Source of the DNA: Mycobacterium mantenii
GTDB taxonomy: Bacteria > Actinomycetota > Actinomycetes > Mycobacteriales > Mycobacteriaceae
Assembly (NCBI RefSeq): GCF_010731775.1
Contig: NZ_AP022590.1
Span: 5,890,001 to 5,954,000 of the forward strand
Length of the DNA: 64,000 nucleotides
Reading direction: 5' to 3'
Shown one piece after another: positions 5,393 through 32,908 of the stretch. A program made the position numbers and the translations under genes. Position 1 is the first letter of the stretch. The number at the start of each line of letters is the position of its first letter. Below the pieces are notes generated by a model. That model was not told where the DNA came from. It saw only the letters and a program-made list of their open reading frames with translations, and did no database searches.

Positions 5393-5420
5393 CCGGTAAA
5401 CCCGCAGGTCAGAAAATCGG

Positions 5421-5450: not shown

Positions 5451-5493
5451 CGAAACCGCAACTCGGCACTACGGAAGAAGGAGGGTGGCCACG

Positions 5494-5652: not shown

Positions 5653-5674
5653 GCACCAGCCCGGTTTCTCCCAG

Positions 5675-5777: not shown

Positions 5778-5793
5778 AAGTAGGTGGTAGGAC

Positions 5794-6066
5794 ATGTCGG
5801 CATCGACAGTCCCCAGACAAACCCTGCCGTGTCACGTCGGCGATCCCGACCTGTGGTTCGCCGACACCCCGGCCGATCTCGAACGCGCCAAGACGCTCTG
5901 CATCGGCTGCCCGGTCCGGCGCCAGTGCCTGGCGGCCGCGCTGGATCGGGCCGAACCCTGGGGTGTGTGGGGCGGCGAGATCATCGACCGCGGTTCGGTG
6001 CTGAGCTTTAAGCGGCCCCGCGGGCGTCCCCGCAAAGGCCAGCGACTGGACGGGGCCGCCGCCTGA
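5794..6066 (+). CDS. whiB7: WhiB7 redox-sensing transcription activator
   Basis: A 90-residue WhiB protein. The [4Fe-4S] cysteines are C13, C36, C39 and C45, the turn GVWGG is at 57-61, and the C-terminal AT-hook RGRPRKG at 76-82 is specific to WhiB7. It binds SigA region 4 and activates intrinsic antibiotic-resistance genes such as erm, eis and tap, as well as itself. The ATG at 5794 is preceded by AGGAAG. It stands between uvrD2 and the ABC1 kinase gene as in M. tuberculosis (Rv3197A). The long leader with an upstream ORF and hairpins explains its antibiotic-inducible expression. Confidence 0.95.
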   Translation: MSASTVPRQTLPCHVGDPDLWFADTPADLERAKTLCIGCPVRRQCLAAALDRAEPWGVWGGEIIDRGSVLSFKRPRGRPRKGQRLDGAAA

Positions 6067-6076
6067 CGCGCGGGAC

Positions 6077-7420: not shown

Positions 7421-7560
7421 GATGGCCAGCGCGATGTGGAGTGAGATAGACAACGCTCGTTGTCACATTCCGTCGGTGCAGCTCAGACCCACCAATCTCC
7501 CCGCCACGCCGCGAGCCACAACCCAAGCGCCACAACGGAAGTGCCCGCCGAACTGCGCGT

Positions 7561-8427: not shown

Positions 8428-8462
8428 CGCGCAACTGTGTCACGCGCGGGGCGGTGGCCCGG

Positions 8463-9839: not shown

Positions 9840-9961
9840 ACCCTCAACGGTACTCACCACGGGGTCGGTCGGCGCGACCTCGGGTCAGCTTGTAGCTGAA
9901 CCCTCCTAGCCGGACGTTGCAGCTGAACACCGCGCCGCGGCCGCCGTCTAGTGTGATCGGC

Positions 9962-10984
9962 GTGAACAGGCGCATCCTGACCTTGGTGGTCGCGCTGGTG
10001 CCGATCGTGGCGTTCGGCGTGTTGCTGGCGGTGGTGACGGTGCCGTTCGTGTCGCTGGGGCCCGGTCCCACCTTCGACACGCTCGGCGAGGTCGACGGCA
10101 AGCAGGTGGTGGCGATCGAGGGCACCCAGACGCACCCGACGACCGGCCACCTCAACATGACCACGGTGTCCCAGCGCGACGATTTGACGCTGGGCGAGGC
10201 GCTGACGCTGTGGCTTTCGGACCAGGAACAGCTGGTGCCGCGCGACCTCATCTATCCGCCCGGCAAGTCGCGCGAGGACGTCGACAAGGCCAACAACGCG
10301 GACTTCAAGCAATCCGAGGACAGCGCCGCCTACGCGGCCCTGGGCTACCTCAAGTACCCGGCGGCCGTCACGGTCGCCAAAGTCCCCGAGCCGGGCCCCT
10401 CGGCGGGCAAGCTCAAGACCGGCGACGCCATCGACGCGGTCAACGGCGTCCCGGTCGCCACCGTCGACGAGTTCACCGGATTGCTGAAGAACACCAAGCC
10501 CGGCCAGGTGGTGACCATCGACTACCGCCGTAAGAACGAGCCGGCCGGGGTGGCACAGATCACGCTGGGTGCCAACAAAGACCGCGACTACGGCTTCCTG
10601 GGCGTCGCCGTGCTCGACGCGCCGTGGGCGCCGTTCACCGTGGACTTCAACCTGGCCAATGTGGGCGGACCATCGGCCGGCCTGATGTTCAGCCTGGCGG
10701 TGGTCGACAAATTGACCACCGGCGACCTGGCCAAGTCGAACTTCATCGCGGGCACCGGGACGATTACGGCCGACGGCAAGGTCGGCCAGATCGGCGGCAT
10801 CACCCACAAGATGGTCGCCGCGCACGCGGCCGGGGCCACGGTTTTTCTGGTGCCGGCGAAGAACTGTTTCGAGGCCAGCTCGGACAATCCGTCCGGGCTG
10901 CGATTGGTCAAGGTCGAGACGCTCGGCCAGGCAGTGGATGCGCTGCACGCGATCGGCTCGGGTGGGCAGCCGCCAAGCTGCTAG
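9962..10984 (+). CDS. membrane-anchored PDZ/Lon-like serine protease
   Basis: A 340-residue orthologue of Rv3194c. One N-terminal membrane helix (about residues 4-30) is followed by a PDZ-containing region (about 135-200) and a Lon-type proteolytic domain. The Ser-Lys dyad is visible as S238 in VGGPSAGLMF and K283 in GGITHK, 45 residues apart as in Lon proteases. The GTG at 9962 starts MNRRILTLVVAL and matches the orthologue; an in-frame upstream extension to 9917 has no support. It probably cleaves substrates outside the membrane. The next gene is a large UPF0182 membrane protein 74 bp downstream, a pairing conserved in mycobacteria. Confidence 0.85.
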   Translation: MNRRILTLVVALVPIVAFGVLLAVVTVPFVSLGPGPTFDTLGEVDGKQVVAIEGTQTHPTTGHLNMTTVSQRDDLTLGEALTLWLSDQEQLVPRDLIYPPGKSREDVDKANNADFKQSEDSAAYAALGYLKYPAAVTVAKVPEPGPSAGKLKTGDAIDAVNGVPVATVDEFTGLLKNTKPGQVVTIDYRRKNEPAGVAQITLGANKDRDYGFLGVAVLDAPWAPFTVDFNLANVGGPSAGLMFSLAVVDKLTTGDLAKSNFIAGTGTITADGKVGQIGGITHKMVAAHAAGATVFLVPAKNCFEASSDNPSGLRLVKVETLGQAVDALHAIGSGGQPPSC

Positions 10985-18938: not shown

Positions 18939-20261
18939 TTGTCGACACATTCAGGTCCCGGCTCACCCGTGCAGATCAATTCGCAGCGGACCCCGCCGTA
19001 CAAGTGGATCGCCGTCGCCGTGCTCGGAGTGTGCGTGCTGATTTTGGCGCTGGTGTACGGGCAATTTCGCGGCGCCTTCACCCCCAAGACCGAGTTGACG
19101 ATGTTGGCGGCGCGGGCTGGGTTGGTGATGGATCCGGGTTCGAAGGTGACTTATAACGGGGTGGAGATCGGCCGGGTGGGGTCGATTTCGGAGACGGTGC
19201 GTGATGGGAAGCCGGCGGCGAAGTTCGTTTTGGAGGTGTATCCGCGCTACCTGAAGCTGATTCCGTCGAATGTGAATGCCGATATCAAGGCGACGACGGT
19301 GTTCGGTGGCAAGTATGTGTCGTTGACGACGCCGGCCAATCCGTCGCCGCAGCGGATCTCGCCGCACACGGTGATCGATGCGCGCTCGGTGACGACGGAG
19401 ATCAACACGTTGTTTCAGACGATCACTTCGATCGCGGAGAAGGTTGATCCGGTCAAGCTGAATTTGACGTTGAGTGCTGCGGCGCAGTCGTTGACGGGGT
19501 TGGGGGAGAAGTTCGGTCAGTCGGTGACGAACGCCAACGCGTTGCTCGATGATGTGAATCCGCAGATGCCGCAGGCGCGCAAGGACATTCAGCGGTTGGC
19601 GGCACTCGGAGACACCTACGCGAACGCGTCGCCGGATCTGTTCGACTTTTTGAACAATGCGGTGGTCACCGCGCGCACGATCAACGCCCAGCAAAAGGAT
19701 TTCGATCAGGCGTTGTTGTCGGCGGCCGGGTTCGGCAATACGGGTGCGGAGTTGTTCAACAAGGGGGGGCCGTATCTGGCGCGCGGCGCCGAAGACCTGG
19801 TGCCCACAGCGCAGCTGCTGGACACCTACAGTCCGGAAATCTATTGCACTCTGCACAACTACCACGACATCGTGCCCATCACCGGTGCTTCCGAAGGCGC
19901 CTTCAACGGCTACTCGTTGAACATGGACACCGAGGTGCTCTCCGGGCTGGGACTGATCGCGAACCCGGTGTCCGCGGTGCCGGTCATCGCGTCCCTGGTC
20001 GGCGGCATCGCCGGGGTAGTCGGCGGCGCGCCCAACCCCTACATCTATCCCGAGAACCTGCCGCGCCTCAACGCCCGCGGCGGGCCGGGTGGCGCCCCGG
20101 GTTGCTGGCAGAAGATCACCCGCGATCTGTGGCCGGCACCCGAGCTGATCATGGACACCGGTAACAGCATCGCCCCGTACAACCACCTGGACACCGGATC
20201 GCCGTATGCGATCGAGTACGTCTGGGGCCGCCAGGTCGGCGACAACACCATCAACCCGTAG
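18939..20261 (+). CDS. orphan MceA-like (MlaD/MCE domain) protein, copy 1
   Basis: A 440-residue MCE-family protein closest in character to Mce1A/Mce2A. One N-terminal membrane helix (about residues 23-42) is followed by the MCE/MlaD domain (about 50-130, GLVMDPGSKVTYNGVEIGRV), a long helical barrel region and the MceA-type C-terminus (NPYIYPENLPRLNARGGPGG, WGRQVGDNTINP). Mce proteins form hexameric lipid-transport tunnels across the envelope. Here there are no yrbE or mceB-F genes, so it must use another locus' permease or be independent. The TTG at 18939 is the best start; GTG 18969 is an alternative. From 19086 on, it is almost identical to copy 2. Confidence 0.85.
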   Translation: MSTHSGPGSPVQINSQRTPPYKWIAVAVLGVCVLILALVYGQFRGAFTPKTELTMLAARAGLVMDPGSKVTYNGVEIGRVGSISETVRDGKPAAKFVLEVYPRYLKLIPSNVNADIKATTVFGGKYVSLTTPANPSPQRISPHTVIDARSVTTEINTLFQTITSIAEKVDPVKLNLTLSAAAQSLTGLGEKFGQSVTNANALLDDVNPQMPQARKDIQRLAALGDTYANASPDLFDFLNNAVVTARTINAQQKDFDQALLSAAGFGNTGAELFNKGGPYLARGAEDLVPTAQLLDTYSPEIYCTLHNYHDIVPITGASEGAFNGYSLNMDTEVLSGLGLIANPVSAVPVIASLVGGIAGVVGGAPNPYIYPENLPRLNARGGPGGAPGCWQKITRDLWPAPELIMDTGNSIAPYNHLDTGSPYAIEYVWGRQVGDNTINP

Positions 20262-20532: not shown

Positions 20533-21840
20533 TTGGCAGGTTCCCCCGTTCAGATCAACGACTCGCGAGAGCCCCCTTACAAGTTCATCACCCTGATCGT
20601 GCTGGCGGTGCTCGCGGTGATCTTCAGCCTGGTCTACGTCCAGTTCCGCGGAGGTTTCACCGAAAAGACCGAGTTGACGATGTTGGCGGCGCGGGCTGGG
20701 TTGGTGATGGATCCGGGTTCGAAGGTGACTTATAACGGGGTGGAGATCGGCCGGGTGGGGTCGATTTCGGAGACGGTGCGTGATGGGAAGCCGGCGGCGA
20801 AGTTCGTTTTGGAGGTGTATCCGCGCTACCTGAAGCTGATTCCGTCGAATGTGAATGCCGATATCAAGGCGACGACGGTGTTCGGTGGCAAGTATGTGTC
20901 GTTGACGACGCCGGCCAATCCGTCGCCGCAGCGGATCTCGCCGCACACGGTGATCGATGCGCGCTCGGTGACGACGGAGATCAACACGTTGTTTCAGACG
21001 ATCACTTCGATCGCGGAGAAGGTTGATCCGGTCAAGCTGAATTTGACGTTGAGTGCTGCGGCGCAGTCGTTGACGGGGTTGGGGGAGAAGTTCGGTCAGT
21101 CGGTGACGAACGCCAACGCGTTGCTCGATGATGTGAATCCGCAGATGCCGCAGGCGCGCAAGGACATTCAGCGGTTGGCGGCACTCGGAGACACCTACGC
21201 GAACGCGTCGCCGGATCTGTTCGACTTTTTGAACAATGCGGTGGTCACCGCGCGCACGATCAACGCCCAGCAAAAGGATTTCGATCAGGCGTTGTTGTCG
21301 GCGGCCGGGTTCGGCAATACGGGTGCGGAGTTGTTCAACAAGGGGGGGCCGTATCTGGCGCGCGGCGCCGAAGACCTGGTGCCCACAGCGCAGCTGCTGG
21401 ACACCTACAGCCCGGAAATCTATTGCTTGATGCGCAACAACTACGACGCGCTGCCCGCCACCGGCGCGGCCGAAGGCGCCTTCAACGGCTACTCGTTGAA
21501 CATGGACACCGAGGTGCTCTCCGGGCTGGGACTGATCGCGAACCCGGTGTCCGCGGTGCCGGTCATCGCGTCCCTGGTCGGCGGCATCGCCGGGGTAGTC
21601 GGCGGCGCGCCCAACCCCTACATCTATCCCGAGAACCTGCCGCGCCTCAACGCCCGCGGCGGGCCGGGTGGCGCCCCGGGTTGCTGGCAGAAGATCACCC
21701 GCGATCTGTGGCCGGCACCCGAGCTGATCATGGACACCGGTAACAGCATCGCCCCGTACAACCACCTGGACACCGGATCGCCGTATGCGATCGAGTACGT
21801 CTGGGGCCGCCAGGTCGGCGACAACACCATCAACCCGTAG
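20533..21840 (+). CDS. orphan MceA-like (MlaD/MCE domain) protein, copy 2
   Basis: A 435-residue protein of the same architecture as copy 1: one N-terminal helix (about 18-37), an MCE domain, a helical region and an MceA C-terminal signature. The first ~45 residues and a short loop (about residues 294-312, CLMRNNYDALPATGAAEG versus CTLHNYHDIVPITGASEG) differ from copy 1; the rest is nearly identical. It starts with TTG 20533. The two copies could form mixed hexamers or be dosage copies. The central segment uses many T- and G-ending codons, unlike the C-rich usage of neighbours, in both copies. Confidence 0.85.
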   Translation: MAGSPVQINDSREPPYKFITLIVLAVLAVIFSLVYVQFRGGFTEKTELTMLAARAGLVMDPGSKVTYNGVEIGRVGSISETVRDGKPAAKFVLEVYPRYLKLIPSNVNADIKATTVFGGKYVSLTTPANPSPQRISPHTVIDARSVTTEINTLFQTITSIAEKVDPVKLNLTLSAAAQSLTGLGEKFGQSVTNANALLDDVNPQMPQARKDIQRLAALGDTYANASPDLFDFLNNAVVTARTINAQQKDFDQALLSAAGFGNTGAELFNKGGPYLARGAEDLVPTAQLLDTYSPEIYCLMRNNYDALPATGAAEGAFNGYSLNMDTEVLSGLGLIANPVSAVPVIASLVGGIAGVVGGAPNPYIYPENLPRLNARGGPGGAPGCWQKITRDLWPAPELIMDTGNSIAPYNHLDTGSPYAIEYVWGRQVGDNTINP

Positions 21841-21916: not shown

Positions 21917-22834
21917 CTAGGCCTGAGAGGCCGCCTCCTGCCGTGCGCTGGCTTTCACGTCACGCCCCGCGCCGGCCGACATGGAGGCGGCCTCACCGCG
22001 AGCCAGGCCGACCGTCGCGACGATCACCACGACGAGCGTCACCGCGAGGACGAACCACTCCCAGCCACCGGCTTCCAACGTCTCGCCGAGCACCAGGATG
22101 CCAAGGACGCCGCCCACCACGGGCTTGGCCACGATGATCGTCGGCAGCGAGGCGGTCAGCGCGCCGGCCCGATACGCGGATTGGTGATAGATCATTCCGG
22201 CCGCCCCGCAGAACACCAGCGCGTACAGCTCGAAGCTGTGCCACACCTGGCCTGGCTGGTGTTCCAGAATGTCGACGACGCCCTTCATCAGGACCGCAAA
22301 AACCGCCAACAACGTGCCGGCCACTGCCGCCAGCAACAGCGCCGCGACCGGGCGATCCGACCAGATGCGCGCGCCGAGCAAACCCAGCAACAACAGCGGG
22401 CCGATCACCACGGCCACCACGATCCACGTGTGCAGTGGCGCCCGCTGCTGGCCGCCGGTCGGATCTCCGATCGAGATGAGCGCCGCCAGCGCCACCGCCA
22501 GCACCAGCGCCCACGTCCACTCGCGGCGGGTGATCGGGTTACCGGTCATCCGCGCGTAGATCGGCAGGGCGAATAGCAGCGCCGTCACCTGCAACGACAT
22601 CACCAGCAACACCGAGCCCTTGTCCAGCGCCGCGGCCAGCAACACGTAACTGCCGATGTCTCCCAAACCGCCCAGCCACCAACGCTTATCGCGCAGCAAC
22701 ATGCCGAACAGCGTCAGGTGGCCCACTTGTTGGTCGGTGACCTCCTGCGCGGACCGTTGCCGGACCACGTTGCCGATCGCGGACGCCAGCGCGGCGCACA
22801 GGGCGAGGATGGCCGCCAAATGCACGTCGGACAT
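21917..22834 (-). CDS. DMT (EamA-like) multi-pass membrane protein
   Basis: A 305-residue protein with about nine or ten membrane helices in two internal halves, the pattern of the drug/metabolite transporter superfamily. The region around residues 3-22 (LAAILALCAALASAIGNVV) starts the first helix, and GALTASLPTIIVAKPVVGGV and ILVLGETLE are typical of EamA domains. The tail is short and polar. The ATG at 22834 follows a strong GAGGAGG ribosome site. The substrate is unknown. It converges on mce copy 2. Confidence 0.75.
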   Translation of the reverse strand: MSDVHLAAILALCAALASAIGNVVRQRSAQEVTDQQVGHLTLFGMLLRDKRWWLGGLGDIGSYVLLAAALDKGSVLLVMSLQVTALLFALPIYARMTGNPITRREWTWALVLAVALAALISIGDPTGGQQRAPLHTWIVVAVVIGPLLLLGLLGARIWSDRPVAALLLAAVAGTLLAVFAVLMKGVVDILEHQPGQVWHSFELYALVFCGAAGMIYHQSAYRAGALTASLPTIIVAKPVVGGVLGILVLGETLEAGGWEWFVLAVTLVVVIVATVGLARGEAASMSAGAGRDVKASARQEAASQA

Positions 22835-22930
22835 GGCAATACCTCCTCATGGGTGCGGTTGCGCTACCCATCCAATCTAGCCGCGACCCGCGCGGCGAGC
22901 GCGCCGACGGGTTGCCCCGGCGCAGCCGGG

Positions 22931-23812
22931 TCAGAGCGGGAATTTCGTCCCGGTCAGCCGCTCGGACAGTTCCCACAGGGCGGCGGCGGTGTCGGCGCGC
23001 TTTGCCGGCCAGTTGCGCCACGTCGGCTGGGTGCGGCCGTACAGCCCGAATCGCGGGCCGACGAAGGTGTCGCCCGGCAAATCCTGCGAGGCCGCGTACA
23101 ACGTCGGGCGGGCGCCGAAATCGGCGTGGGTGGAGACGATCCGGTCGACCGCCAGGACCGCCGCGTCTCCCAGCTTGCGGCCGGAGTTGCCCTGCAGGTT
23201 CGTGTGCGACCAGCCCGGGTGGGCGGCCAGCGCGCGCAGCGAAGTGGGGACGCTGTCGAGGCGCCGCTGCAGCTCCTTGGTGAACAGCAGGTTGGCCAGC
23301 TTCGACTGGCTGTAGGCCAGCCACGCCGAATATGGACGCGAGTCGAAGTTCAGGTCCTTGAGACTGATGTAGCCGAAGTGGTGCATCAGCGAGGACACCG
23401 TCACCACGCGGTCGGTCAGCTTGGGCAACAGCAGGTTGGTTAACGCGAAATGGCCGAGGTGGTTGGTGCCGATCTGGCCCTCGAAGCCGTCGACCGTCAC
23501 CGCGTGTTTGGTGGCCATGATGCCGGCGTTGTTGATCAGGACGTCGACCGTGTCGATGCCGTCGGCAAAGCGTCGCACCGACGACAGGTCTTGCAGGTCG
23601 AGCTGCCGCACCTCGGCTGTGCCGGTTGCGGGGCCGGACATCCGCGCGGCGGCGGCCCGACCCTTGTCGGTGTTGCGGACGGCCAGGATGACGTGGCCAC
23701 CGACCCGAATCAACTCGCGGGCGGTGATCTCGCCCAGCCCGGCATTGGCCCCCGTGATGACGATGGTTCGTCCGGCGAACGAGGGCAGCTCGGCTGCGGT
23801 CCAATCGGCCAT
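22931..23812 (-). CDS. short-chain dehydrogenase/reductase
   Basis: A 293-residue classical SDR. The NAD(P)-binding motif is TGANAGLG, NNAG is in the fourth strand, the catalytic Ser is in VTVSSLMHH and the Tyr-Lys pair in AYSQSKLANLLF. It resembles the retinol-dehydrogenase-like SDR group common in mycobacteria (for example Rv0439c). The ATG at 23812 (MADWTAAELPSFAGRT) matches the family N-terminus; an in-frame GTG at 23821 is possible. It lies 96 bp downstream of the DMT permease start, in the same direction and upstream of it. Confidence 0.85.
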   Translation of the reverse strand: MADWTAAELPSFAGRTIVITGANAGLGEITARELIRVGGHVILAVRNTDKGRAAAARMSGPATGTAEVRQLDLQDLSSVRRFADGIDTVDVLINNAGIMATKHAVTVDGFEGQIGTNHLGHFALTNLLLPKLTDRVVTVSSLMHHFGYISLKDLNFDSRPYSAWLAYSQSKLANLLFTKELQRRLDSVPTSLRALAAHPGWSHTNLQGNSGRKLGDAAVLAVDRIVSTHADFGARPTLYAASQDLPGDTFVGPRFGLYGRTQPTWRNWPAKRADTAAALWELSERLTGTKFPL

Positions 23813-23985
23813 GGCAGACACCCTAACTTCGCACTTGCGAGGGTGGCCGTCGGGCCGAGGGGTCGTGCAGCGGTATGCAGGAGCGTTACTGATCTCCCGC
23901 CGCGCGCGGGTATCGTGCCTGGGATGACCAGCGAAATCCCTCCTGAGCGGTTGCTTGGCACCCGACCGGGGCGGAATTTTGTCGG

Positions 23986-24999
23986 GTGCGAATCGGGGTT
24001 CGCGGCGTGTATCTAGGCGTCATCGTCAATCCGAAAGCGCGGCGAAATCGCGCCGCATCCCGCGACCGCATCGACGAACTGCGGCGCACCGTCGGCGCCT
24101 GGGGCGAGGTGCACGAGACGCACTCGATCGAGGAGCTGCGCGACACCATCGGCCAGCTCGCGCCCCGCGTCACCCACCTGGTGGGCGACGGCGGCGACGG
24201 CGCACTGCACTGGTTGATCAACGAGATCGAGCAATGCGTCGGCGATCCGCAACGCTGGCCCGCGTTCGTCCCGACCAACGGCGGCAGTGTCAACGCCGTC
24301 GCGCGCAAGGCCCGGGTGCGCGGACGGCCCGAAGCGATCGTCCGTGCGCTGACCGACGCCGCCAAGGCGGATCAACCGCCGCCCGAGGTGGACCTGGACA
24401 CGTTGGTGCTCGACGGCGCAACCGCCGACGGCGAGGGGTTTCATCGGCTCTGCTTCGGGCTGGCGGCCGGGGGCGTCGGCAACCGGTTCTACGACCGGTA
24501 TTACGACGCACCCGATCACAATCGGCTGGCCGTCGCGCGGGTGATCGCCCGCAGCTTCGGTGACTACATCACCTCCAAGGTCGCGCCGAGCCGGGTGAAG
24601 ACGCCGAATTACGCGTCCATCCTGTTTACACCGACGCGAGCGCGCGTGGTGATCGACGGTGAGGAGGTCCCGTCGCGCACGCACAGCCTGCTGCACGCCG
24701 GCGCGATCGACCTGCGCATCGGCGGCCCACTTCGGTTGTTCCCCAAGGCTTCCGAGCCCGGCGCCCTGCATTTTCAGGCCGGACACCTGCGGCCATCCGC
24801 GATCGTGGTGCAGCTTCCGACGGCCCTGACCAACGGCATGCTGCGCGGCGACGGGCTACGCGATGTCAACGGCCATGAGATGGTCATCGAAGCCGAGGAC
24901 GAGCCGCTGTCGCCCATCATCGACGGCGAGCGTTTCCTCGGCATCGTGAAACTCGTCGCCCGCGCAGGCCCGCGCATCCGCGTCGCCCGGCCCGCCTAG
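23986..24999 (+). CDS. diacylglycerol/sphingosine-type lipid kinase
   Basis: A 337-residue protein of the DAGK catalytic-domain family. The nucleotide-binding signature VGDGGDGALHW appears near residues 66-76 and FVPTNGGSVNAVAR follows; the family's usual PxGTxN is altered to PTNGGSVN. A C-terminal substrate lobe contains HAGAIDLRIGGPLRL and IIDGERF. It phosphorylates a lipid with ATP at the membrane face; in mycobacteria related enzymes feed phosphatidylinositol-type or diacylglycerol recycling. The start is uncertain: GTG 23986 or GTG 24007. Confidence 0.75.
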   Translation: MRIGVRGVYLGVIVNPKARRNRAASRDRIDELRRTVGAWGEVHETHSIEELRDTIGQLAPRVTHLVGDGGDGALHWLINEIEQCVGDPQRWPAFVPTNGGSVNAVARKARVRGRPEAIVRALTDAAKADQPPPEVDLDTLVLDGATADGEGFHRLCFGLAAGGVGNRFYDRYYDAPDHNRLAVARVIARSFGDYITSKVAPSRVKTPNYASILFTPTRARVVIDGEEVPSRTHSLLHAGAIDLRIGGPLRLFPKASEPGALHFQAGHLRPSAIVVQLPTALTNGMLRGDGLRDVNGHEMVIEAEDEPLSPIIDGERFLGIVKLVARAGPRIRVARPA

Positions 25000-25466
25000 C
25001 GGCTACCGCCCGGGGCCGTCACGTAGATCCCCCCGGCACGTAGGTAGTTTTGCCCGTGCCCGCGGCTTCCCGGACCCGTCCAATGCCATCGGATAATTGC
25101 GTTTTTCGCTTTGCAGTTTCGGCACTACGTGTAACGAAGTTAAAATCGTATTTCGGCCGACGGCGCGCGACCGTTAGAAATAGGAAATGCGTGAATTCGC
25201 AGATACGTAGTTCAGTATTTCAGGGGCCCGGACGGCGGTAATGCCTGGTTGTACGCCACTGAGATACTGAAGTACGTACACGCGTAGATCAGCATCCGTG
25301 CAATTGATTCCGACGTTTAAGTTTATCCTGAGAATGTAGTGTGCGATGGCCATTAATGCTGCTCGAGGTTTTGCTCGGGTCGGCAGTGCAGCGCTACATT
25401 GGTCGTATATTCACGACGTAAGTCGTTCTCGGGCTGAGCCAACCTGGAAGGGGGATCACTCCTACG
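25000..25466 (+). promoter_or_regulatory. AT-rich intergenic regulatory region of the FAAL operon
   Basis: 467 bp without a convincing gene, clearly richer in A/T than its surroundings, especially 25095-25200 and 25290-25345. It holds a large inverted repeat (25204-25278), a promoter-like TACATT (25395-25400, with TTGCTC 18 bp upstream) and GGAAGGGGG (25446-25454) as ribosome site for the FAAL gene. A 63-codon frame at 25050 looks non-coding. Confidence 0.6.
25204..25278. repeat. 20-bp inverted repeat with 35-bp spacer
   Basis: The arm TACGTAGTTCAGTATTTCAG (25204-25223) matches the reverse complement of 25259-25278 at 18 of 20 positions. It lies about 190 bp upstream of the FAAL start. It could be a pair of regulator half-sites brought together by looping, or the ends of a lost element. 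Confidence 0.85.
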
Positions 25467-28400
25467 ATGGAGACGCTGATCGATTACCTGCAGATGTGGG
25501 AAGCGCAGAAGCCGGACCAGACCCTCTTCCGGTTCGTCGACGCCGACGGCCGCGAACTCGAGCACTACACCTACCAGGCCTTCGCCGACCGCAGCCGCGA
25601 GCTGGCCGCCTACCTGTCCAAGGAGGCCGGCCTGAAGTCCGGTGACCGTGCGCTGCTGGTCTACCCGCCCGGTCTGGAAATGATCGCGGCGCTCTATGCG
25701 TGCGCCCGCATCGGCGTGATCGCCGTTCCGGTCAGCCCCCCGCTGCCGATGTCCTTCGATTCCGGGCTGGCCAAGCTCAGCTTCATCGCCCGCGATTGCC
25801 AGGCCACGGCGGTGCTGTCGACGAAGCAGTTCGAGTACGACTTCCGCCTGTTGCTCGGTCAGCGCCACGGCGAGAAGCTGTGGACGGGCGAGTCCGGCGC
25901 CGGCCTGCCGCAGCTGCCCTGGTATGCGACCGACGGTGCGCAGGAGTTCGGCGGCGCACCGGTCGCGGACACGCCAGGTGAGGTGCTCTTCCTGCAGTAC
26001 ACCTCGGGCTCGACCAGCGATCCGAAGGGTGTGATCGTCACCCATGCCAACGTCATCGCCAACGGTTTCGCCTTCACCGGCGACGTCGTGCTGGCGTCGT
26101 GGCTGCCGCAGCACCACGACATGGGTCTGATCTCGGCCTACATGTACATCGTGTTGCTGGGCGGGTCCACGCACGCGATGTCACCCCTGGACTTCCTCGC
26201 CCGGCCGTCCTCCTGGCTGCGGCTGATCAGCGACGTGCGCGCCACTCACACGCCGGGACCGAACTTCGCGCTCGAATACTGCCTGCGCGAGGACAAGCTG
26301 CCGGCCGCCGAATTGGCCGGCGTCGACCTGAGCAGCCTCGAGTGCATCGTGGTGGGGGCGGAGCCGTTGCGCGCCAACACCTTCGCTCAATTCCGGCGGC
26401 GGTTCGCCGAGTATGGTCTGCGGCCCGAGGCGCTGACCGGTGCCTACGGCATGGCCGAATCCACCCTGATCGTGTCGATCCGCGGACGCCAGACCATCGC
26501 GGTCAACAAGCGCGGGCTGGAGCGCAACGTTGCGCGCGTGGAGAAGGCGTTGCCGGAGAACAGCAACCAGGTCGCCCTGGTCAGTTGCGGCAAGCCCATC
26601 GAAGGGACCCTGGTTCGCATCGTCGATCCCGAGTCGCGGCAGGAGTTGCCCGACGGGCGGGTCGGGGAGGTCTGGCTGGCCGGGCCGTCCAAGGGGGCCG
26701 GCTACTGGAACCGCCCGGAGCTCACCGCGGAGATGTTCGGCGCCCGCATCACCGGCGATGACGAGCACACCTATCTGCGGACCGGCGATCTCGGCTTCCT
26801 CTACGAGGGCGAGCTTTTCGTCTGCGGCCGCAGCAAGGACCTGATCATCGTCCGCGGCGTCAACTGCTACCCCTCCGACATCGAAGCCGTCGTCGAGCGC
26901 ACTTCCGCGCAGGTCCGCAGCGGCTGCGTCGCCGCCTTCTCGGTCGAGCACGACGAGTCCGAAGCGCTCATCGTCGTCGCCGAGGTGCGCGACGAGCACA
27001 ACCTCCCGGACGTCAAGGCGATGGCCCGCGCGATCCGGCGGCACTGCCACATCGATCCGCACGCGATCGTCTTCGCGCCGCCGCGCAGCATTCCCAAGAC
27101 CACTTCGGGGAAGATCCGGCGCGCGTCGACGCGCCAGCTGTGGCGCGACGGCGAGTTGCCCGCCTTCACCAGCTGGATCAACCAGTCGGTCAACCGAACT
27201 CACGATGGCGCGGGTGCGGGTCCGCTGGAGCGCTTCCGCAACCTCATCGAGAGTTACGACCTGGCCGGCGACGAGGATTGCTCGTTCGCCGACCTCGGCA
27301 TCGACTCGCTGGCGCTGGCCGAACTTCGCACGGACCTGCAGGCCCTACTGGAGGAGAACGGCGCGGGCGAGCTGGCCGAAGAGGTCAACACTCGCCTCCT
27401 GCAGCGGTTGACCGTGTCCGAATTCTTCGGGCTGATAAGCCAATTCGGCGAGGGATCCGGGCAGCCACTCGATGCCCTGCGCCGGGCGCTGGGTCAGATC
27501 TCCGCCGATTACGAGGCCCAGGAGGCAGCCCAGATGCGGGCCGACGCGGCGCTGCCGCTGCCGGAGCTGGCACCCGCGCGACCGGGTGAGCCCACCGATC
27601 TGCTGCTCACCGGCGCGACCGGATTCCTTGGGCCGTTCCTGGTGAGCAGCCTGCTGGCGCGGACCTCCTACACGGTGCACGCACTGGTGCGCGCCACCGA
27701 CGCCGCGCACGGCCTGGACCGCATCGTCGCGTCGCTGCGCCGCGCCCAGCTCTGGACGCCGGCACTGGAGGCCGACGTCCGCGCGCGGGTCCGCGTCGTC
27801 TGCGGCGATCTCGCCAAGCCCGCGCTGGGCATCGGGGAGGCGGCCTTCGCGCAACTGGCGCACGACGTCGACGCCGTCGTGCACAACGGCGCCCTGGTCA
27901 ACTACGTGCGTACTTACGACGCCCTGCGGCCCGCCAACGTGGAGGGCACCCGCGAGCTGTTGCGACTTGCAATGACCAACCACCGCAAGGCTTTCCACCT
28001 CGTCTCCAGCACGTTCATCTACGGCTGGAGCACCGAGCCGGTGGTCGGGGAGTGGGATGCCAACGAAAAGATGGCCGGTCTGGACTTCGGTTACTCGCAG
28101 ACCAAATGGGTCGGCGAGCAGCTGGCACTGGCCGCGCAGCGCAAGGGACTCGACGTCCGCATCTACCGGCCGTCGCTGATCTCGCCGACCCGTGCGGGTT
28201 TCGGCAGCCAGGACGACATCTTGGTGCGGCTGACGGCGTTCATGATCGAGCACGGGGTCGCCGTCAACGCGCTCAACCAGATCAGCCTGCTGCCGGCGGA
28301 CTTGATCGCGGACCACATCGTCACGCTGATGGGCCTGCCGGACGAGTCGGGCAGCGTGTTCAACATGACCGCGGACGACTACTACAACCTCACCGACGTC

Positions 28401-28718
28401 ACCCGCATCCTGTCCGAACGCTACGGGTATCGCTTCGACTACCACGACATCGGATCCTTCACCGAACAGCTGTACCGCCGCTGCACGCCGAACGACCAGA
28501 TGTATCCGCTGGTCGACTTCCTCACCCGGTCGGCGGACAAGATCGCGGCGATGCGGGACAAGCGATACGACAATACCCAGTACCGCCACCGGCGGAGGCT
28601 CGCCAACGTTCGGCTGCGCGAGCCGGCCCTGACCGAGACGGTCGATCATCTCGTCCGGTTCTTGCGCAACGAGCGTTTGATCACTGAGGTAGAGGACGAG
28701 GCGCAGCGCAGCGCCTAG
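25467..28718 (+). CDS. FAAL-ACP-thioester reductase tri-domain enzyme
   Basis: A 1083-residue protein. Residues 1-~570 form a fatty acyl-AMP ligase: FLQYTSGSTSDPKGVIVTH is the ATP loop and ASWLPQHHDMGLI is the FAAL-type variant motif; PKTTSGKIRR ends the domain. Residues ~590-670 form an acyl carrier domain with FADLGIDSLALAEL, the phosphopantetheine Ser being S614. Residues ~708-1083 form an NAD(P)H thioester reductase: GATGFLG at 716-722 and the YSQTK pair Y876/K880. Expected chemistry: activate a fatty acid with ATP, load it on its own ACP, and release it as aldehyde or alcohol. It is first in a four-gene operon. It differs from carboxylic acid reductases by the FAAL-type first domain. Confidence 0.9.
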   Translation: METLIDYLQMWEAQKPDQTLFRFVDADGRELEHYTYQAFADRSRELAAYLSKEAGLKSGDRALLVYPPGLEMIAALYACARIGVIAVPVSPPLPMSFDSGLAKLSFIARDCQATAVLSTKQFEYDFRLLLGQRHGEKLWTGESGAGLPQLPWYATDGAQEFGGAPVADTPGEVLFLQYTSGSTSDPKGVIVTHANVIANGFAFTGDVVLASWLPQHHDMGLISAYMYIVLLGGSTHAMSPLDFLARPSSWLRLISDVRATHTPGPNFALEYCLREDKLPAAELAGVDLSSLECIVVGAEPLRANTFAQFRRRFAEYGLRPEALTGAYGMAESTLIVSIRGRQTIAVNKRGLERNVARVEKALPENSNQVALVSCGKPIEGTLVRIVDPESRQELPDGRVGEVWLAGPSKGAGYWNRPELTAEMFGARITGDDEHTYLRTGDLGFLYEGELFVCGRSKDLIIVRGVNCYPSDIEAVVERTSAQVRSGCVAAFSVEHDESEALIVVAEVRDEHNLPDVKAMARAIRRHCHIDPHAIVFAPPRSIPKTTSGKIRRASTRQLWRDGELPAFTSWINQSVNRTHDGAGAGPLERFRNLIESYDLAGDEDCSFADLGIDSLALAELRTDLQALLEENGAGELAEEVNTRLLQRLTVSEFFGLISQFGEGSGQPLDALRRALGQISADYEAQEAAQMRADAALPLPELAPARPGEPTDLLLTGATGFLGPFLVSSLLARTSYTVHALVRATDAAHGLDRIVASLRRAQLWTPALEADVRARVRVVCGDLAKPALGIGEAAFAQLAHDVDAVVHNGALVNYVRTYDALRPANVEGTRELLRLAMTNHRKAFHLVSSTFIYGWSTEPVVGEWDANEKMAGLDFGYSQTKWVGEQLALAAQRKGLDVRIYRPSLISPTRAGFGSQDDILVRLTAFMIEHGVAVNALNQISLLPADLIADHIVTLMGLPDESGSVFNMTADDYYNLTDVTRILSERYGYRFDYHDIGSFTEQLYRRCTPNDQMYPLVDFLTRSADKIAAMRDKRYDNTQYRHRRRLANVRLREPALTETVDHLVRFLRNERLITEVEDEAQRSA

Positions 28719-28752
28719 CGTTACGACTTGGCGACGGAAAGGGGTGGCGACG

Positions 28753-29661
28753 ATGTTCACCGTCGACGACAAGGCAACGGGCCCGCATGACGCCTCGCTC
28801 GACCACGAGCGGATCGTCCTGCAAGCGCGTGACGTCGACTTCGACTGGTCGACGCTGCCGTTCTACTACGTGCCCAACGAACCCTTCACCACCCACTTCT
28901 GCAACGTGCTGCACCTGTTGCTGCCGGCGGGTGAGGAGTTCATCGTCGACGCCTTCAAGGACACCTTGCCGCTGATCAAAGACGATCAACTGCGGCGCGA
29001 TGTGCAGGGATTCATCAGCCAGGAGGCCATGCATTCCCAGGCGCACGCGGGGGTGCTGGGGCACTTCGCGGCCAAAGGCATCGACGTGACGCCGTTCACC
29101 GACCAGATGCGTTGGCTATTCACCCAACTCATCGGTGACCGGCCGCGGTGGAGCCGGCGCCGGCGGCAGAGCTGGTTGCTCGAGCGGGTGTCGATGGTCG
29201 CCGCGCTGGAGCACTACACCGCCATCCTGGGCGAATGGATTCTCGACACCCCGCAGCACGACGCCATGGGCACCGACCCGATGATGCTGGACCTGTTGCG
29301 CTGGCACGGCGCCGAGGAAGTCGAGCACAAAGCGGTCGCCTTCGACACCATGAAGCACCTGCGGGCCGGGTATTGGCGGCAGGTGCGCACCCAGCTGCTG
29401 ATCACGCCGGCCCTACTGTGGTTGTTCGTCCGCGGCGTGCGGTTCATGTACTCCGTCGACCCCTACCTGCCGCCCGGCACCAAGCCGCGCTGGCTGGACT
29501 ACTTCCGCGCGGCGCGACGGGGTTTGGTGCCCGGGCCGTTCCAGTTCCTCCGGGTCATCGGCGCCTACTACACGCCGAGTTTCCACCCGTCCCAGCTGGG
29601 CGGGGTGGGACGCGCGGTCGACTACCTGGCCCGCTCACCCGCCGCCCGCGCGTCGCACTGA
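28753..29661 (+). CDS. PF10118-like protein with complete diiron-carboxylate motif
   Basis: A 302-residue protein usually annotated as 'predicted metal-dependent hydrolase'. The helices carry E62, E91-x-x-H94, E153 and E189-x-x-H192, the exact E, ExxH, E, ExxH order and near spacing (29, 59, 36) of ferritin-like diiron oxygenases and oxidases. It may therefore be a non-haem diiron enzyme acting on the lipid product of the preceding gene. A hydrophobic stretch at about 209-227 suggests membrane contact. The ATG at 28753 has AAAGGGG upstream (GTG 28744 also in frame). It lies 34 bp after the FAAL gene and 3 bp before the hydrolase. The activity is inferred, not known. Confidence 0.7.
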   Translation: MFTVDDKATGPHDASLDHERIVLQARDVDFDWSTLPFYYVPNEPFTTHFCNVLHLLLPAGEEFIVDAFKDTLPLIKDDQLRRDVQGFISQEAMHSQAHAGVLGHFAAKGIDVTPFTDQMRWLFTQLIGDRPRWSRRRRQSWLLERVSMVAALEHYTAILGEWILDTPQHDAMGTDPMMLDLLRWHGAEEVEHKAVAFDTMKHLRAGYWRQVRTQLLITPALLWLFVRGVRFMYSVDPYLPPGTKPRWLDYFRAARRGLVPGPFQFLRVIGAYYTPSFHPSQLGGVGRAVDYLARSPAARASH

Positions 29662-29664
29662 ACC

Positions 29665-30594
29665 ATGACGACCGAACTCGCTTCAACCATGGTCGCCGCC
29701 TCCGACGGCGTGCGGCTGGCGGTGCACGCCTACACCGACATCGACCCCGGGCGGCCGACCATCCTGGCCATCCACGGTTACCCGGACAACCACCACGTGT
29801 GGGACGCGGTGGCAACGACATTGGGCCGCCGCTTCAATGTCGTGGCGTACGATGTGCGCGGCGCCGGCCAATCCTCAACGCCGGCAACCTATTCGGGGTA
29901 TCTGCTGCCGCAGCTGGTCGCTGACGTCGGCGCGGTGATCGACCGCCTGGGCGTGGACTCGGTACACTTGCTGGCCCACGATTGGGGATCGATCCAGGCC
30001 TGGGCGGCGGTCACCGACGACTCGGTGATGGACAGGATCGCCTCGTTCACGTCGGTCTCCGGTCCCCATCTGAACTATGCGGGCAGGTTCCTGCGGTCAG
30101 CGCGCACGCCGCGCGCGCTCCTCGACGTGGTCAAACAAATCGTGGCCTCGTCCTACATCTGGTTTTTCCTGTGCCCGGGGCTGCCCGAACTCGCGATCCG
30201 GTCCGGGGCGACGGTGAAAGTCTTTGAAGCGGTTGAGCGTATCGGCGGATCGAAGACCGGCAGCGAGCGCGGTGCGGCGTACCGCTCGGCAGACGACTAC
30301 CTCAACGGGCTCAACCTGTACCGCGCGAACATGCCGGCACCGATCCTGTCACCCCCGGCGCGGCTGCCACAGACCACCGTTCCGGTGCAGGTACTGGTCG
30401 CCCGCCAGGACTATTTCGTATCGCCCGCGCTGCAACGGTTTACCGGCTCCATCCCAGCCGGCGGCAGGGTCGTCCCGATCGAGGGCGGCCACTGGGTGGT
30501 CACCGCGCACCCCGACGTCATCGCCCGGCTCACCGGCGAGTGGGTCGACCTGATCGCGCATTCCGCCGATCGTCGCGGCATCGGCCAGATGTGA
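29665..30594 (+). CDS. alpha/beta hydrolase, EphD-like
   Basis: A 309-residue alpha/beta hydrolase. IHGYPDNHHVWD forms the oxyanion region, LLAHDWGS holds the nucleophile (D106, an Asp as in epoxide hydrolases and haloalkane dehalogenases), and GGHWVV holds the catalytic His. The ASFTSVSGP segment after the nucleophile resembles the N-terminal hydrolase domain of M. tuberculosis EphD (Rv2214c), but the EphD C-terminal SDR domain is missing. An Asp nucleophile suggests epoxide opening, which would suit an oxygenated lipid made by the neighbouring diiron protein. Only 3 bp separate it from the gene before and 2 bp from the gene after. Confidence 0.82.
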   Translation: MTTELASTMVAASDGVRLAVHAYTDIDPGRPTILAIHGYPDNHHVWDAVATTLGRRFNVVAYDVRGAGQSSTPATYSGYLLPQLVADVGAVIDRLGVDSVHLLAHDWGSIQAWAAVTDDSVMDRIASFTSVSGPHLNYAGRFLRSARTPRALLDVVKQIVASSYIWFFLCPGLPELAIRSGATVKVFEAVERIGGSKTGSERGAAYRSADDYLNGLNLYRANMPAPILSPPARLPQTTVPVQVLVARQDYFVSPALQRFTGSIPAGGRVVPIEGGHWVVTAHPDVIARLTGEWVDLIAHSADRRGIGQM

Positions 30595-30596
30595 GG

Positions 30597-31679
30597 ATGA
30601 TTGTGGCACAGACTATTTGGGAGAGCATTCCAGCCGACCTCTACGGCCGTCGCAAACGCGACCGCATGTACACCGCCTTGTACGGGGTCGGTGCGCTGTT
30701 CGGCGGCATGGCGTCGGCGTCCCGGTGGACGTCGTCACGCGTGGCGTCCGTGCGGCGCACCACCACCGCGTTGGTCACCCAACGCGAGCTGGTGGCGCCC
30801 GATGTGGTCGCGTTGACGCTGGCTGACCCGGCTGGTGGATTGTTGCCGTCCTGGACACCGGGCGCGCACATCGACGTTCGGCTGCCGTCGGGTCGCCGCC
30901 GGCAGTACTCGCTGTGCGGTTCGCCCGGCCGGCGCACCGACTATCGCATCGCGGTGCGCCGCATCGCCGACGGCGGCGGTGGTTCGATCGAGATGCACGA
31001 GACCTTCGCGGTGGGGGACAGATTCGAATTCGAAGGGCCGCGCAACGCGTTCTATCTCGTCACCGACGAACGCGAGGTGCTGTTCGTGATCGGCGGCATC
31101 GGGGTGACGCCCATCCTGCCCATGATGCAGGCGGCCCAACAGCGCGGAATCGATTGGCGCGCCGTCTATGCCGGCCGTAGCCGGGATGACATGCCGTTGC
31201 TGGACGAGGTGGTGGCGGTGGCCCCCGACCGGGTCACCGTGTGGGCCGACGACGAGCGCGGCCGATTCCCCACTGCGGCGGACCTGCTCGCCGACGCCGG
31301 GCCGACGACGGCCGTCTACGTGTGTGGCCCCACCGCCATGCTGGAATCGGTGCGCACCGCGCGTGACGAACATGCGAACGCGCCACTGCACTATGAGCGT
31401 TTCGGCCCGCCTCCGGTGGTCGATGGTGTTCCCTTCGAACTGGAACTGGCCCGCTCCCAACGGGTGCTCAGCGTCCCGGAAAACCGGTCGGCCCTGGACG
31501 TGATGCTCGATCGCGACCCGACCACCGCCTACTCCTGCCAGCAGGGGTTCTGCGGCACCTGCAAGGTGAAAGTGCTTGGCGGGCAGGTCGATCGGCGCGG
31601 ACGCGCCGCAGAGGGCGACGACGAGATGCTGGTCTGCGTTTCCCGGGCGAAAAACGGCCGCGTGGTGATCGACGCCTGA
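30597..31679 (+). CDS. flavin/2Fe-2S oxidoreductase (phthalate-dioxygenase-reductase type)
   Basis: A 360-residue reductase. About 50 N-terminal residues precede the flavin domain (RQYSLCGSP is the FMN/FAD-binding motif), then an NAD(P)H domain (IGGIGVTPILPM, YVCGPTAML) and a C-terminal plant-type ferredoxin with C314, C319, C322 and C347. It passes electrons from NAD(P)H to a partner oxygenase. It begins 2 bp after the hydrolase stop (ATG 30597, GAGG just upstream), so it is almost certainly the electron donor of the operon, most likely for the diiron protein. M. tuberculosis pairs a similar reductase (Rv3230c) with the desaturase DesA3. Confidence 0.88.
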   Translation: MIVAQTIWESIPADLYGRRKRDRMYTALYGVGALFGGMASASRWTSSRVASVRRTTTALVTQRELVAPDVVALTLADPAGGLLPSWTPGAHIDVRLPSGRRRQYSLCGSPGRRTDYRIAVRRIADGGGGSIEMHETFAVGDRFEFEGPRNAFYLVTDEREVLFVIGGIGVTPILPMMQAAQQRGIDWRAVYAGRSRDDMPLLDEVVAVAPDRVTVWADDERGRFPTAADLLADAGPTTAVYVCGPTAMLESVRTARDEHANAPLHYERFGPPPVVDGVPFELELARSQRVLSVPENRSALDVMLDRDPTTAYSCQQGFCGTCKVKVLGGQVDRRGRAAEGDDEMLVCVSRAKNGRVVIDA

Positions 31680-31711
31680 GCGCGGTGATGCGCCACTTGT
31701 GACCTCCCACC

Positions 31712-32908
31712 ATGCAGAATGGCGTGGTGAACGGATTCGGCTTTCACACCTTGGCGTTGCTCGCCGCTGTCGGGATGGCCGGCCCGGTCCTGGCTTCGGT
31801 CCCGCGCCTGCGGATACCGGTGGTGGTCGGTGAATTGGTCGCGGGCCTGGTGATCGGCAGGACCGGTTTCGACGTGGTCGATATCGCCGACCCGACGTTT
31901 GCGGTGCTGGCGAATATCGGCTTCGCGCTGGTGATGTTCGTGGTGGGCACCCATGTGCCGGTCCGCGAGGCCGCGATGCGCTCGGCGTTTCCGGTGGCCC
32001 TGGGGCGCGCCGTGCTCAGTGGAGGCGTCGCGGTAGCACTGGGTATCGGTCTGGCCGCGACATTCGGAACCGGCCACCCGGCGCTCTACGCGGTCCTGAT
32101 GGCCTCGTCGTCGGCGGCGCTGGCGTTGCCGGTGATCGATTCGCTGGGGCTGCGGGGACGTCAGGTACTGTCCGTGACCACGCAGATCGCCATTGCGGAC
32201 ACTTCCTGTATTGTGCTGCTGCCGTTGGTGATTGACATCAAAAGGGCGCCGACGGCGGCGCTGGGGGCGCTGGCGGTGGCGGGTTTCGCAGCGGCGCTGT
32301 TCGTGGTGCTGCGCACCGTCGACCGCAAGGGCTGGCGCAAACGCCTGGACCGCTATTCCGAGATGCACCGGTTGGCGCTGGAGCTGCGGACCAGCCTGCT
32401 GGTGCTGTTCGGGCTGGCGGCGCTGGCCGTCACCACCCACGTGTCGATCATGCTGGCGGGTTTCGCGGTCGGCCTGGTGGTCGGGGCGGTCGGCGAACCG
32501 CGCCGGTTGGCGCGCCAACTTTTCGGCATCACCGAGGGATTCTTCAGCCCGCTGTTCTTCGTGTGGCTGGGCGCCTCGTTGCAGGTCCGCGAACTCGGCG
32601 CACACCCGAAGCTGATCCTGCTGGGCGCGGGACTGGGACTCGGTGCGGTGCTGGCGCATTGCGCCGGACGGCTGCTTCGCCAGCCGCTCACCTTCGGGGT
32701 TCTTTCGGCGGCGCAGCTCGGCGTGCCGGTGGCCGCGGCCACCATCGGCACCCAGGAACACCTCCTGGTCGCCGGAGAGGCGTCGGCGCTGATGTTCGGC
32801 GCCCTGCTGACCGTCGCGGCGGCGTCGATCGCGGGCACGCTGGCCGCGCGTGGCCAGGACACAGCCGAACCGGGCGAGGCCGTGCAGACCCCGCTACGTC
32901 ATGCTTAG
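31712..32908 (+). CDS. CPA2-type cation:proton antiporter
   Basis: A 398-residue protein with about twelve hydrophobic segments. The N-terminal PVVVGELVAGLVIGRTGF is the typical helix of KefB/NhaP-like monovalent cation:proton antiporters, and SSSAALALPVIDSLG and SPLFFVWLGASL follow the family pattern. It has no RCK domain. The ATG at 31712 is used; GTG starts at 31724 and 31727 are also possible. It follows the reductase by 32 bp and may be read through from the lipid operon, but no functional link is obvious. Confidence 0.8.
   Translation: MQNGVVNGFGFHTLALLAAVGMAGPVLASVPRLRIPVVVGELVAGLVIGRTGFDVVDIADPTFAVLANIGFALVMFVVGTHVPVREAAMRSAFPVALGRAVLSGGVAVALGIGLAATFGTGHPALYAVLMASSSAALALPVIDSLGLRGRQVLSVTTQIAIADTSCIVLLPLVIDIKRAPTAALGALAVAGFAAALFVVLRTVDRKGWRKRLDRYSEMHRLALELRTSLLVLFGLAALAVTTHVSIMLAGFAVGLVVGAVGEPRRLARQLFGITEGFFSPLFFVWLGASLQVRELGAHPKLILLGAGLGLGAVLAHCAGRLLRQPLTFGVLSAAQLGVPVAAATIGTQEHLLVAGEASALMFGALLTVAAASIAGTLAARGQDTAEPGEAVQTPLRHA

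What the first reader, a model, noticed from the sequence alone, without database searches (positions are those of the whole stretch)
25467..31679. Four-gene operon that could make and oxidise a fatty aldehyde
Seen: FAAL-ACP-thioester reductase, a protein with a full diiron motif, an EphD-like hydrolase with an Asp nucleophile, and a flavin/2Fe-2S reductase, with gaps of 34, 3 and 2 bp. Known: FAAL-ACP-reductase modules release fatty aldehydes or alcohols, and diiron oxygenases need such reductases. Inferred: fatty acid -> acyl-ACP -> aldehyde -> diiron step (deformylation to hydrocarbon, hydroxylation or epoxidation) -> optional epoxide opening. I know of no described mycobacterial pathway with this set. 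An alternative is modification of a mycolate or wax precursor.
Basis: partly seen in the sequence, partly recalled or inferred. Interest (0 to 1): 0.85.

Follow-up and report, generated by a model that had tools for sequence, protein, structure and literature searches.

The report
Mycobacterial fatty-acid epoxidation gene set (predicted)
A conserved four-gene operon in a group of slow-growing mycobacteria looks like a small factory that loads a fatty acid on a carrier, oxidises it with a two-iron enzyme so far labelled a 'hydrolase', opens the resulting epoxide and releases the product by reduction; the lipid it makes is unknown.

Summary
In detail: FAAL-ACP-thioester reductase, PF10118 protein, alpha/beta hydrolase and flavin/2Fe-2S reductase, gaps 34, 3 and 2 bp. 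Co-conservation holds: of 297 genomes of the genus 60 have the FAAL gene, the same 60 have the close PF10118 gene, and 59 have them 15-201 bp apart. The tree fits one gain of the FAAL gene, on an older PF10118 + reductase (+ EphD-like fusion) module. PF10118 is named 'metal-dependent hydrolase'. Here it looks like a ferritin-like diiron oxygenase: seven ligand-type residues are invariant in 98 aligned members, the model has pLDDT 90, its best structure matches are CmlI, R2lox, R2 and AurF (none under E 0.001), and all seven residues align with the AurF family. Its QExxH...HxxEExxH motif nearly equals that of CylC-type enzymes, which act on FAAL/ACP-loaded acyl chains (PMC12101540, passages). 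The hydrolase keeps the epoxide-hydrolase residues in 70 of 70 sequences. Best reading: acyl-ACP epoxidation or hydroxylation, diol formation, reductive release. Deformylation to hydrocarbon is disfavoured. Substrate and product are unknown. Grade: new variant of a known kind.

The parts
25467..28718 (+). FAAL - ACP - thioester reductase (1083 aa): FAAL about residues 1-565, carrier Ser614, reductase about 700-1060
   Evidence: Pfam PF00501, PF07993, TIGR01746; PDB relatives include FAALs and the MxaA reductase domain; Ser614, Tyr876, Lys880 in 53 of 53 full-length gene calls aligned, window included
28753..29661 (+). PF10118 protein, predicted ferritin-like diiron oxygenase (302 aa; GTG at 28744 possible)
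29020..29034 (+). QExxH motif (Q90 E91 A M H94), helix 2
   Evidence: Q90, E91, H94 invariant in 98 of 98 aligned members, window included
29305..29328 (+). HxxEExxH motif (H185 G A E188 E189 V E191 H192), helix 4
   Evidence: H185, E188, E189, E191, H192 invariant in 98 of 98; lines up with H192/E195/E196/H199 of the AurF-family alignment
29665..30594 (+). EphD-like alpha/beta hydrolase without an SDR half, predicted epoxide hydrolase (309 aa)
   Evidence: D106, Y164, Y219, D249, H276 in 70 of 70
30597..31679 (+). flavin/NAD(P)H/2Fe-2S reductase of the phthalate dioxygenase reductase type (360 aa)
   Evidence: flavin-site RQYSL and the four Cys in 62 of 62 full gene calls, NAD motif with one variable position

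Best explanation
An operon for making an oxygenated fatty aldehyde or alcohol. (1) The FAAL domain activates a free fatty acid as acyl-AMP and loads it on the fused ACP (inferred from domains and conserved residues). (2) The PF10118 protein, a ferritin-like diiron oxygenase with an AurF/CylC-type 3-His/4-Glu ligand set, oxygenates the acyl chain, most likely epoxidising a double bond, while the chain is on the ACP. Electrons come from NAD(P)H through the flavin/2Fe-2S reductase. The fold class, ligand set and reductase pairing are computed; the reaction, the site and the ACP-bound stage are inferred. (3) The EphD-like hydrolase opens the epoxide to a diol (residue set shown, substrate inferred). 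In early-branching relatives a fused SDR could oxidise the diol further. (4) The thioester reductase releases the product as aldehyde or alcohol (inferred).
Against: PF10118 modules stand without any FAAL beside them in 12 of 12 and 15 of 15 sister loci, so the substrate need not be acyl-ACP. The hydrolase is missing in one FAAL locus of 55 with room (L079), in 6 of 12 FAAL-less named loci and in 3 of the 15 others, so the epoxide step is not obligatory; one sister locus (L110) has no reductase. Six of the 13 loci L168-L180 show no match to the window's reductase within 1.5 kb. A second FAAL-reductase copy lies without a diiron gene beside an MmpL transporter (L159). Foldseek hits do not pass E 0.001; AurF Pfam is below cut-off (17.8 of 29.6 bits); hhalign probability is only 13%; R2 proteins score as high as CmlI in VIA-align. 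No coordinates were available to measure ligand distances. No lipid data.
Confidence: 0.5

Rival explanations
1. The diiron-reductase-EphD module acts on a lipid that does not come from the FAAL (for example an unsaturated mycolate, wax or acyl-CoA), as it presumably does in the sister clades, and the FAAL-ACP-reductase supplies a fatty alcohol or aldehyde as a second building block of the same complex lipid.
For: Module without an adjacent FAAL in 12 of 12 and 15 of 15 sister loci; the two PF10118 paralogues of this genome are still 77% identical, so the substrate may not have changed; a second FAAL-reductase copy sits with MmpL and no diiron gene; EphD acts on epoxymycolates in M. smegmatis (passages of PMC7998700).
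Against: Single origin and strict adjacency of the FAAL gene to this PF10118 clade suggest a direct hand-over.
Confidence: 0.27
2. One reading: the reductase makes a fatty aldehyde and the diiron enzyme deformylates it to a hydrocarbon, as cyanobacterial ADO does.
For: A fatty aldehyde is a plausible reductase product; one solved protein with reported ADO activity is a weak Foldseek match (6d9f, rank 19, TM 0.30).
Against: The HxxEExxH helix gives a third His that, by recall, ADO lacks; relatives with the same motif type are N-oxygenases and halogenases (PMC12101540, passages); an epoxide hydrolase has no role; sister modules have no FAAL-reductase beside them as aldehyde source.
Confidence: 0.06
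3. PF10118 is a CylC-like C-H halogenase on acyl-ACP and the Asp-nucleophile hydrolase removes the halide.
For: QExxH with Gln as in CylC, HxxEExxH, FAAL-ACP partner. E153 is invariant here, but the Glu that CylC is predicted to shift away is nearly invariant there too (PMC12101540), so it does not decide.
Against: The hydrolase keeps both cap tyrosines typical of epoxide hydrolases (recalled) and is far closer to the EphD-type model (318 bits) than to haloalkane dehalogenase models (53.5 bits or less); modules of this kind exist without FAAL-ACP; Glu replaces the Asp of the CylC motif.
Confidence: 0.06
4. PF10118 is really a metal-dependent hydrolase, as its Pfam name says, and the reductase serves another enzyme.
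For: The family name and the description of Rv2777c as a putative metal dependent hydrolase (PMC5637355, passage); several distant PF10118 genes have no such reductase next to them.
Against: Ferritin-like model, AurF-type ligand set and recurrent electron-transfer neighbours.
Confidence: 0.05

Closest known systems
CylA-CylB-CylC and NocL-NocM-NocO (cyanobacterial FAAL + ACP + dimetal halogenase)
   Same: FAAL and ACP with a ferritin-like dimetal enzyme bearing QExxH and an HxxD/EExxH motif; NADPH with ferredoxin and ferredoxin reductase as electron source in vitro (PMC12101540, passages).
   Different: Here FAAL, ACP and a thioester reductase are one protein, Asp of HxxDExxH is Glu, the protein is PF10118 (about 300 aa), there is a dedicated flavin/2Fe-2S reductase and an epoxide hydrolase, and no PKS in the operon. 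No CylC sequence was compared.
AurF / CmlI diiron N-oxygenases (PF11583)
   Same: Four-helix diiron fold class and all seven ligand columns.
   Different: Below the AurF Pfam cut-off; no arylamine pathway noticed nearby; reductase partner in the operon.
EphD (epoxide hydrolase-SDR fusion of mycobacteria)
   Same: N-terminal half and the epoxide-hydrolase residues; early-branching members still have an SDR half.
   Different: The window gene has no SDR half. The EphD-type fusion of the sister module in this genome (69% to the window's hydrolase) is only 38% identical to a third, separate EphD-like gene of this genome, taken here, untested, as the true EphD.
Rv2777c-Rv2776c of M. tuberculosis
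   Same: By recalled position beside gpsI, pepR and ald, these would be the sister PF10118-reductase pair; PMC5637355 calls Rv2777c a putative metal dependent hydrolase.
   Different: No FAAL-reductase (recalled); the correspondence was not tested by sequence here.
Carboxylic acid reductases (A-PCP-R)
   Same: Adenylation, carrier and reductase in one chain.
   Different: The adenylation domain here is FAAL-like. A CAR-like gene lies upstream in some relatives (L036).

Membership tests
PF10118 Metal_hydrol | score over Pfam cut-off 33.2 | tested here: met
   249.4 bits
AurF family (PF11583) | score over Pfam cut-off 29.6 | tested here: not met
   17.8 bits, E 0.0019; matched at E up to 10 by 12 of 98 members
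AurF family (PF11583) | 3-His/4-carboxylate ligand set E, ExxH, E, HxxxExxH | tested here: met
   E61, E91xxH94, E153, H185xxxE189xxH192 invariant in 98 and aligned to E82, E113xxH116, E165, H192xxxE196xxH199 of A3 (13% probability); metal binding itself untested
AurF family (PF11583) | fold of solved AurF/CmlI | tested here: inconclusive
AurF family (PF11583) | N-oxygenation of arylamines | not testable with these tools
   needs enzyme assay
CylC-type dimetal halogenases | QExxH motif | tested here: met
   Q90-E91-x-x-H94 invariant in 98
CylC-type dimetal halogenases | HxxDExxH motif | tested here: not met
   HxxEExxH: Glu in place of Asp in 98 of 98
CylC-type dimetal halogenases | FAAL and ACP encoded upstream | tested here: met
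   fused FAAL-ACP directly upstream in 56 of 56 close-clade loci; absent beside the sister clades
CylC-type dimetal halogenases | sequence homology to CylC | not tested
   no CylC sequence was at hand
EphD | epoxide-hydrolase catalytic residues (Asp, His, acid, two cap Tyr) | tested here: met
   D106, H276, D249, Y164, Y219 in 70 of 70; their roles are recalled
EphD | C-terminal SDR domain | tested here: not met
   gene ends after 309 aa; SDR present in 10 FAAL loci, absent in 41 with room
EphD | NCBIfam PRK05855 cut-off 455 | tested here: not met
   318 bits
FAAL (fatty acyl-AMP ligase) | closest solved relatives of the adenylation domain are FAALs | tested here: met
   FadD23 and FadD32 entries are among the top hits; the very top entries are titled polyketide synthase (7r7e-g) and saframycin Mx1 synthetase B (3kxw), which I recall as FAAL domains; named NCBIfam FAAL models match but below their cut-offs
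FAAL (fatty acyl-AMP ligase) | FAAL-specific insertion that blocks CoA | not tested
   not examined residue by residue
Phthalate dioxygenase reductase type | flavin - NAD - C-terminal 2Fe-2S order | tested here: met
Aldehyde-deformylating oxygenase | fold and 2-His/4-carboxylate site of cyanobacterial ADO | tested here: inconclusive
   only one weak match to a protein with reported ADO activity (6d9f); extra His present

The most novel reading that the evidence does not exclude
PF10118, a family of thousands of proteins (3356 found with one query) labelled 'predicted metal-dependent hydrolase', is a third branch of three-histidine ferritin-like diiron enzymes (beside AurF/CmlI and CylC/NocO). 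In these mycobacteria it epoxidises or hydroxylates a fatty acyl chain held on a FAAL-loaded ACP, followed by epoxide opening and reductive release to a dihydroxy fatty aldehyde or alcohol: a PKS-free lipid pathway that our searches did not find described in mycobacteria.
Probability: 0.35. Interest if true: 0.82.

Novelty: new variant of a known kind. Interest (0 to 1): 0.62.

Why it matters
It would correct the function of a whole Pfam family, probably including the M. tuberculosis protein Rv2777c, which papers list as a conserved hypothetical or putative hydrolase (PMC2775200, PMC5637355, passages). It predicts a new oxygenated mycobacterial lipid that can be looked for directly, and it would extend FAAL/ACP-tethered diiron oxidation, described for cyanobacterial halogenases, to mycobacteria.

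Tried and rejected
Literature: PF10118 gave one paper (listing only, on lanthipeptide proteases), COG3687 none, FAAL + thioester reductase with metal-dependent hydrolase two reviews seen as listing only, with diiron none, other combinations nothing on this pathway in the listings. These are open-licence PMC papers only. PDB by sequence: no relative of the PF10118 protein at E up to 1 with one sequence, and only a chance match with the profile. Deformylation, halogenation and true hydrolase were weighed and put low (see rivals). Epoxymycolate or wax-ester mycolate formation was considered; no evidence ties the operon to a lipid class. In the 69-locus scan no record titled M. avium or M. intracellulare appeared, but that scan uses six exact peptide patterns and may leave out genomes very near the window's.
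Full report
What is there. The window lies at 5.89-5.95 Mb of a 6.19 Mb genome; the closest named PF10118 matches are M. colombiense strains and close kin (98%). Four genes run in one direction: FAAL-ACP-thioester reductase (25467-28718), a PF10118 protein (28753-29661), an EphD-like alpha/beta hydrolase (29665-30594) and a flavin/NAD/2Fe-2S reductase (30597-31679), with gaps of 34, 3 and 2 bp. No terminator-like site was found in 24900-31950 against a mean of 3.0 in shuffles, and one promoter-like site against 0.9. dN/dS of the four genes against seven relatives is about 0.03-0.34, lowest for PF10118 (0.03-0.12).

Co-conservation. In 297 genomes of the genus, the own one included, the FAAL gene (E <= 1e-200) is in 60. 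The same 60 carry a PF10118 gene at 83% identity or more, and 59 have the two on one strand 15-201 bp apart. In the last (G083) they lie on different contigs; a named contig with the same PF10118 coordinates (L069) starts with the end of the FAAL gene. In the 68 loci L036-L103 of the named-genome scan, FAAL is directly upstream in 56 of 56 loci of the close clade. There the reductase is downstream in 54 of 54 with room and the hydrolase in 54 of 55 with room. In the other 12 loci FAAL is present in 0, the reductase in 12, the hydrolase in 6. A maximum-likelihood tree of 47 PF10118 proteins (23 with FAAL) needs a single change for FAAL (99/99). In 249 genomes of the order the FAAL gene at E <= 1e-130 was found in 6 genomes, all of this genus, 1 of 68 genera. 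PF10118 itself is sparse outside the genus: a match to the window's protein in 4 of 24 same-order genomes, and PF10118 at E <= 1e-20 in 8 of 149 genomes of the phylum, four of the eight from this genus. Where found in other families of the order it stands with a reductase and an EphD-like or alpha/beta hydrolase gene (Rhodococcus L100 and L103; L122-L124, L161). So a PF10118-reductase(-EphD) module looks old, and one mycobacterial lineage put a FAAL-ACP-reductase in front of it.

The EphD half. In ten FAAL loci and in four of the 12 FAAL-less ones the hydrolase is followed by an SDR domain, as one gene of about 550-600 aa (SDR confirmed by Pfam in L111 and L122). In the M. colombiense-like and interjectum-like species, and apart from them in L110, L118 and L119, it stands alone, most simply by loss. 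The 70 aligned hydrolases, with a separate EphD-like gene of this genome, keep His37-Gly38, Asp106, Tyr164, Tyr219, Asp249 and His276 in every row. That these are the epoxide-hydrolase residues is recalled knowledge of the alpha/beta family; the nearest solved proteins are epoxide hydrolases. Mycobacterial EphD is reported to show epoxide-hydrolase activity with 9,10-cis-epoxystearic acid and to change epoxymycolates (PMC7998700, passages).

Precedent. PMC12101540 (passages) describes CylC and NocO: ferritin-like dimetal halogenases resembling AurF, with QExxH and HxxDExxH motifs, acting on acyl chains on an ACP, with FAAL partners, assayed with NADPH, ferredoxin and ferredoxin reductase. [quoted passage not shown] PMC8406957 (passages) says that type I PKS clusters with CylC homologues typically have a FAAL and an ACP upstream, and that homologues outside cyanobacteria are rare. 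PF10118 has QExxH and HxxEExxH, and here sits behind a fused FAAL-ACP. I did not compare it with a CylC sequence.

Electron partners. The reductase belongs to the phthalate dioxygenase reductase type, with RQYSL and the four cysteines in 62 of 62 full gene calls. More distant PF10118 genes sit beside the same type (L156, L157, L163; 7 of the 13 loci L168-L180, of which L173 is the L157 locus again and L179 a FAAL locus). Two paralogues of about 40% identity sit beside an FAD ferredoxin-reductase-like gene (L153, L184). No match to the window's reductase was seen beside the PF10118 genes of L104, L154, L158, L181 and L185 or within 1.5 kb in six of the 13 loci; most of these neighbourhoods were not annotated further. 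A distant actinobacterium has an acyl ligase gene overlapping its PF10118 gene, with a flavin oxidoreductase next in line (L181). On balance this fits an O2-using enzyme better than a hydrolase.

Mechanism and its limits. Best fit: FAAL loads a fatty acid on ACP; PF10118 with its reductase oxygenates the chain, probably at a double bond; the hydrolase makes a diol; the reductase domain releases aldehyde or alcohol. Computed here: genes, residues, fold class, partners, history. Inferred: substrate, order, epoxide, product. Against a tight coupling: the sister modules have no FAAL beside them, one FAAL locus lacks the hydrolase (L079), and one genome has a second FAAL-reductase with MmpL and a DMT transporter but no diiron gene next to it (L159).

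Known or new. Each part is of a known kind; the set, and a reading of PF10118 as a diiron oxygenase, were not found in our searches (open-licence PMC only). M. tuberculosis Rv2777c, called a putative metal dependent hydrolase in PMC5637355 and listed among genes responding to capreomycin/PA-824 and as upregulated at high temperatures in PMC2775200 (passages), is by recalled position the sister protein; I did not test that by sequence.

Noticed in passing
L159 (G036:C123), 3504-10779: A second FAAL-ACP-reductase (73% to the window's) followed by an MmpL transporter and a DMT transporter, without a diiron gene: perhaps the export arm of a related lipid.
   Followed up: partly
window 18969-20261 and 20533-21840: Two adjacent Mce-type proteins (PF11887 + PF02470) upstream of the DMT gene; in L036 this place holds a carboxylic-acid-reductase-like gene, and L038, L040, L042 and L068 have a protein of the same cluster there.
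   Followed up: partly
window 21917-24999: DMT transporter, SDR and a diacylglycerol-kinase-like gene are kept next to the operon in most FAAL loci; the kinase could belong to the same lipid pathway.
   Followed up: no
L111 7353-8774; L183 5104-6582: FMO-like flavoprotein genes near PF10118 modules of other types.
   Followed up: no
L101 (M. lepromatosis), L065 (M. lepraemurium): Decayed copies: in M. lepromatosis PF10118 and reductase match in pieces; in M. lepraemurium the FAAL gene is called as two pieces while the other three are whole.
   Followed up: no
L107 (G029), about 11575-12850: FAAL gene interrupted by about 1.27 kb, possibly an insertion.
   Followed up: no
L153 and L184: PF10118 paralogues of about 40% identity sit beside an FAD ferredoxin-reductase-like gene instead of the flavin/2Fe-2S type.
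   Followed up: partly
L181 8837-11247: In a distant actinobacterium an acyl ligase gene overlaps a PF10118 gene by 4 bp, followed by a flavin oxidoreductase: an independent ligase-PF10118 pairing.
   Followed up: partly
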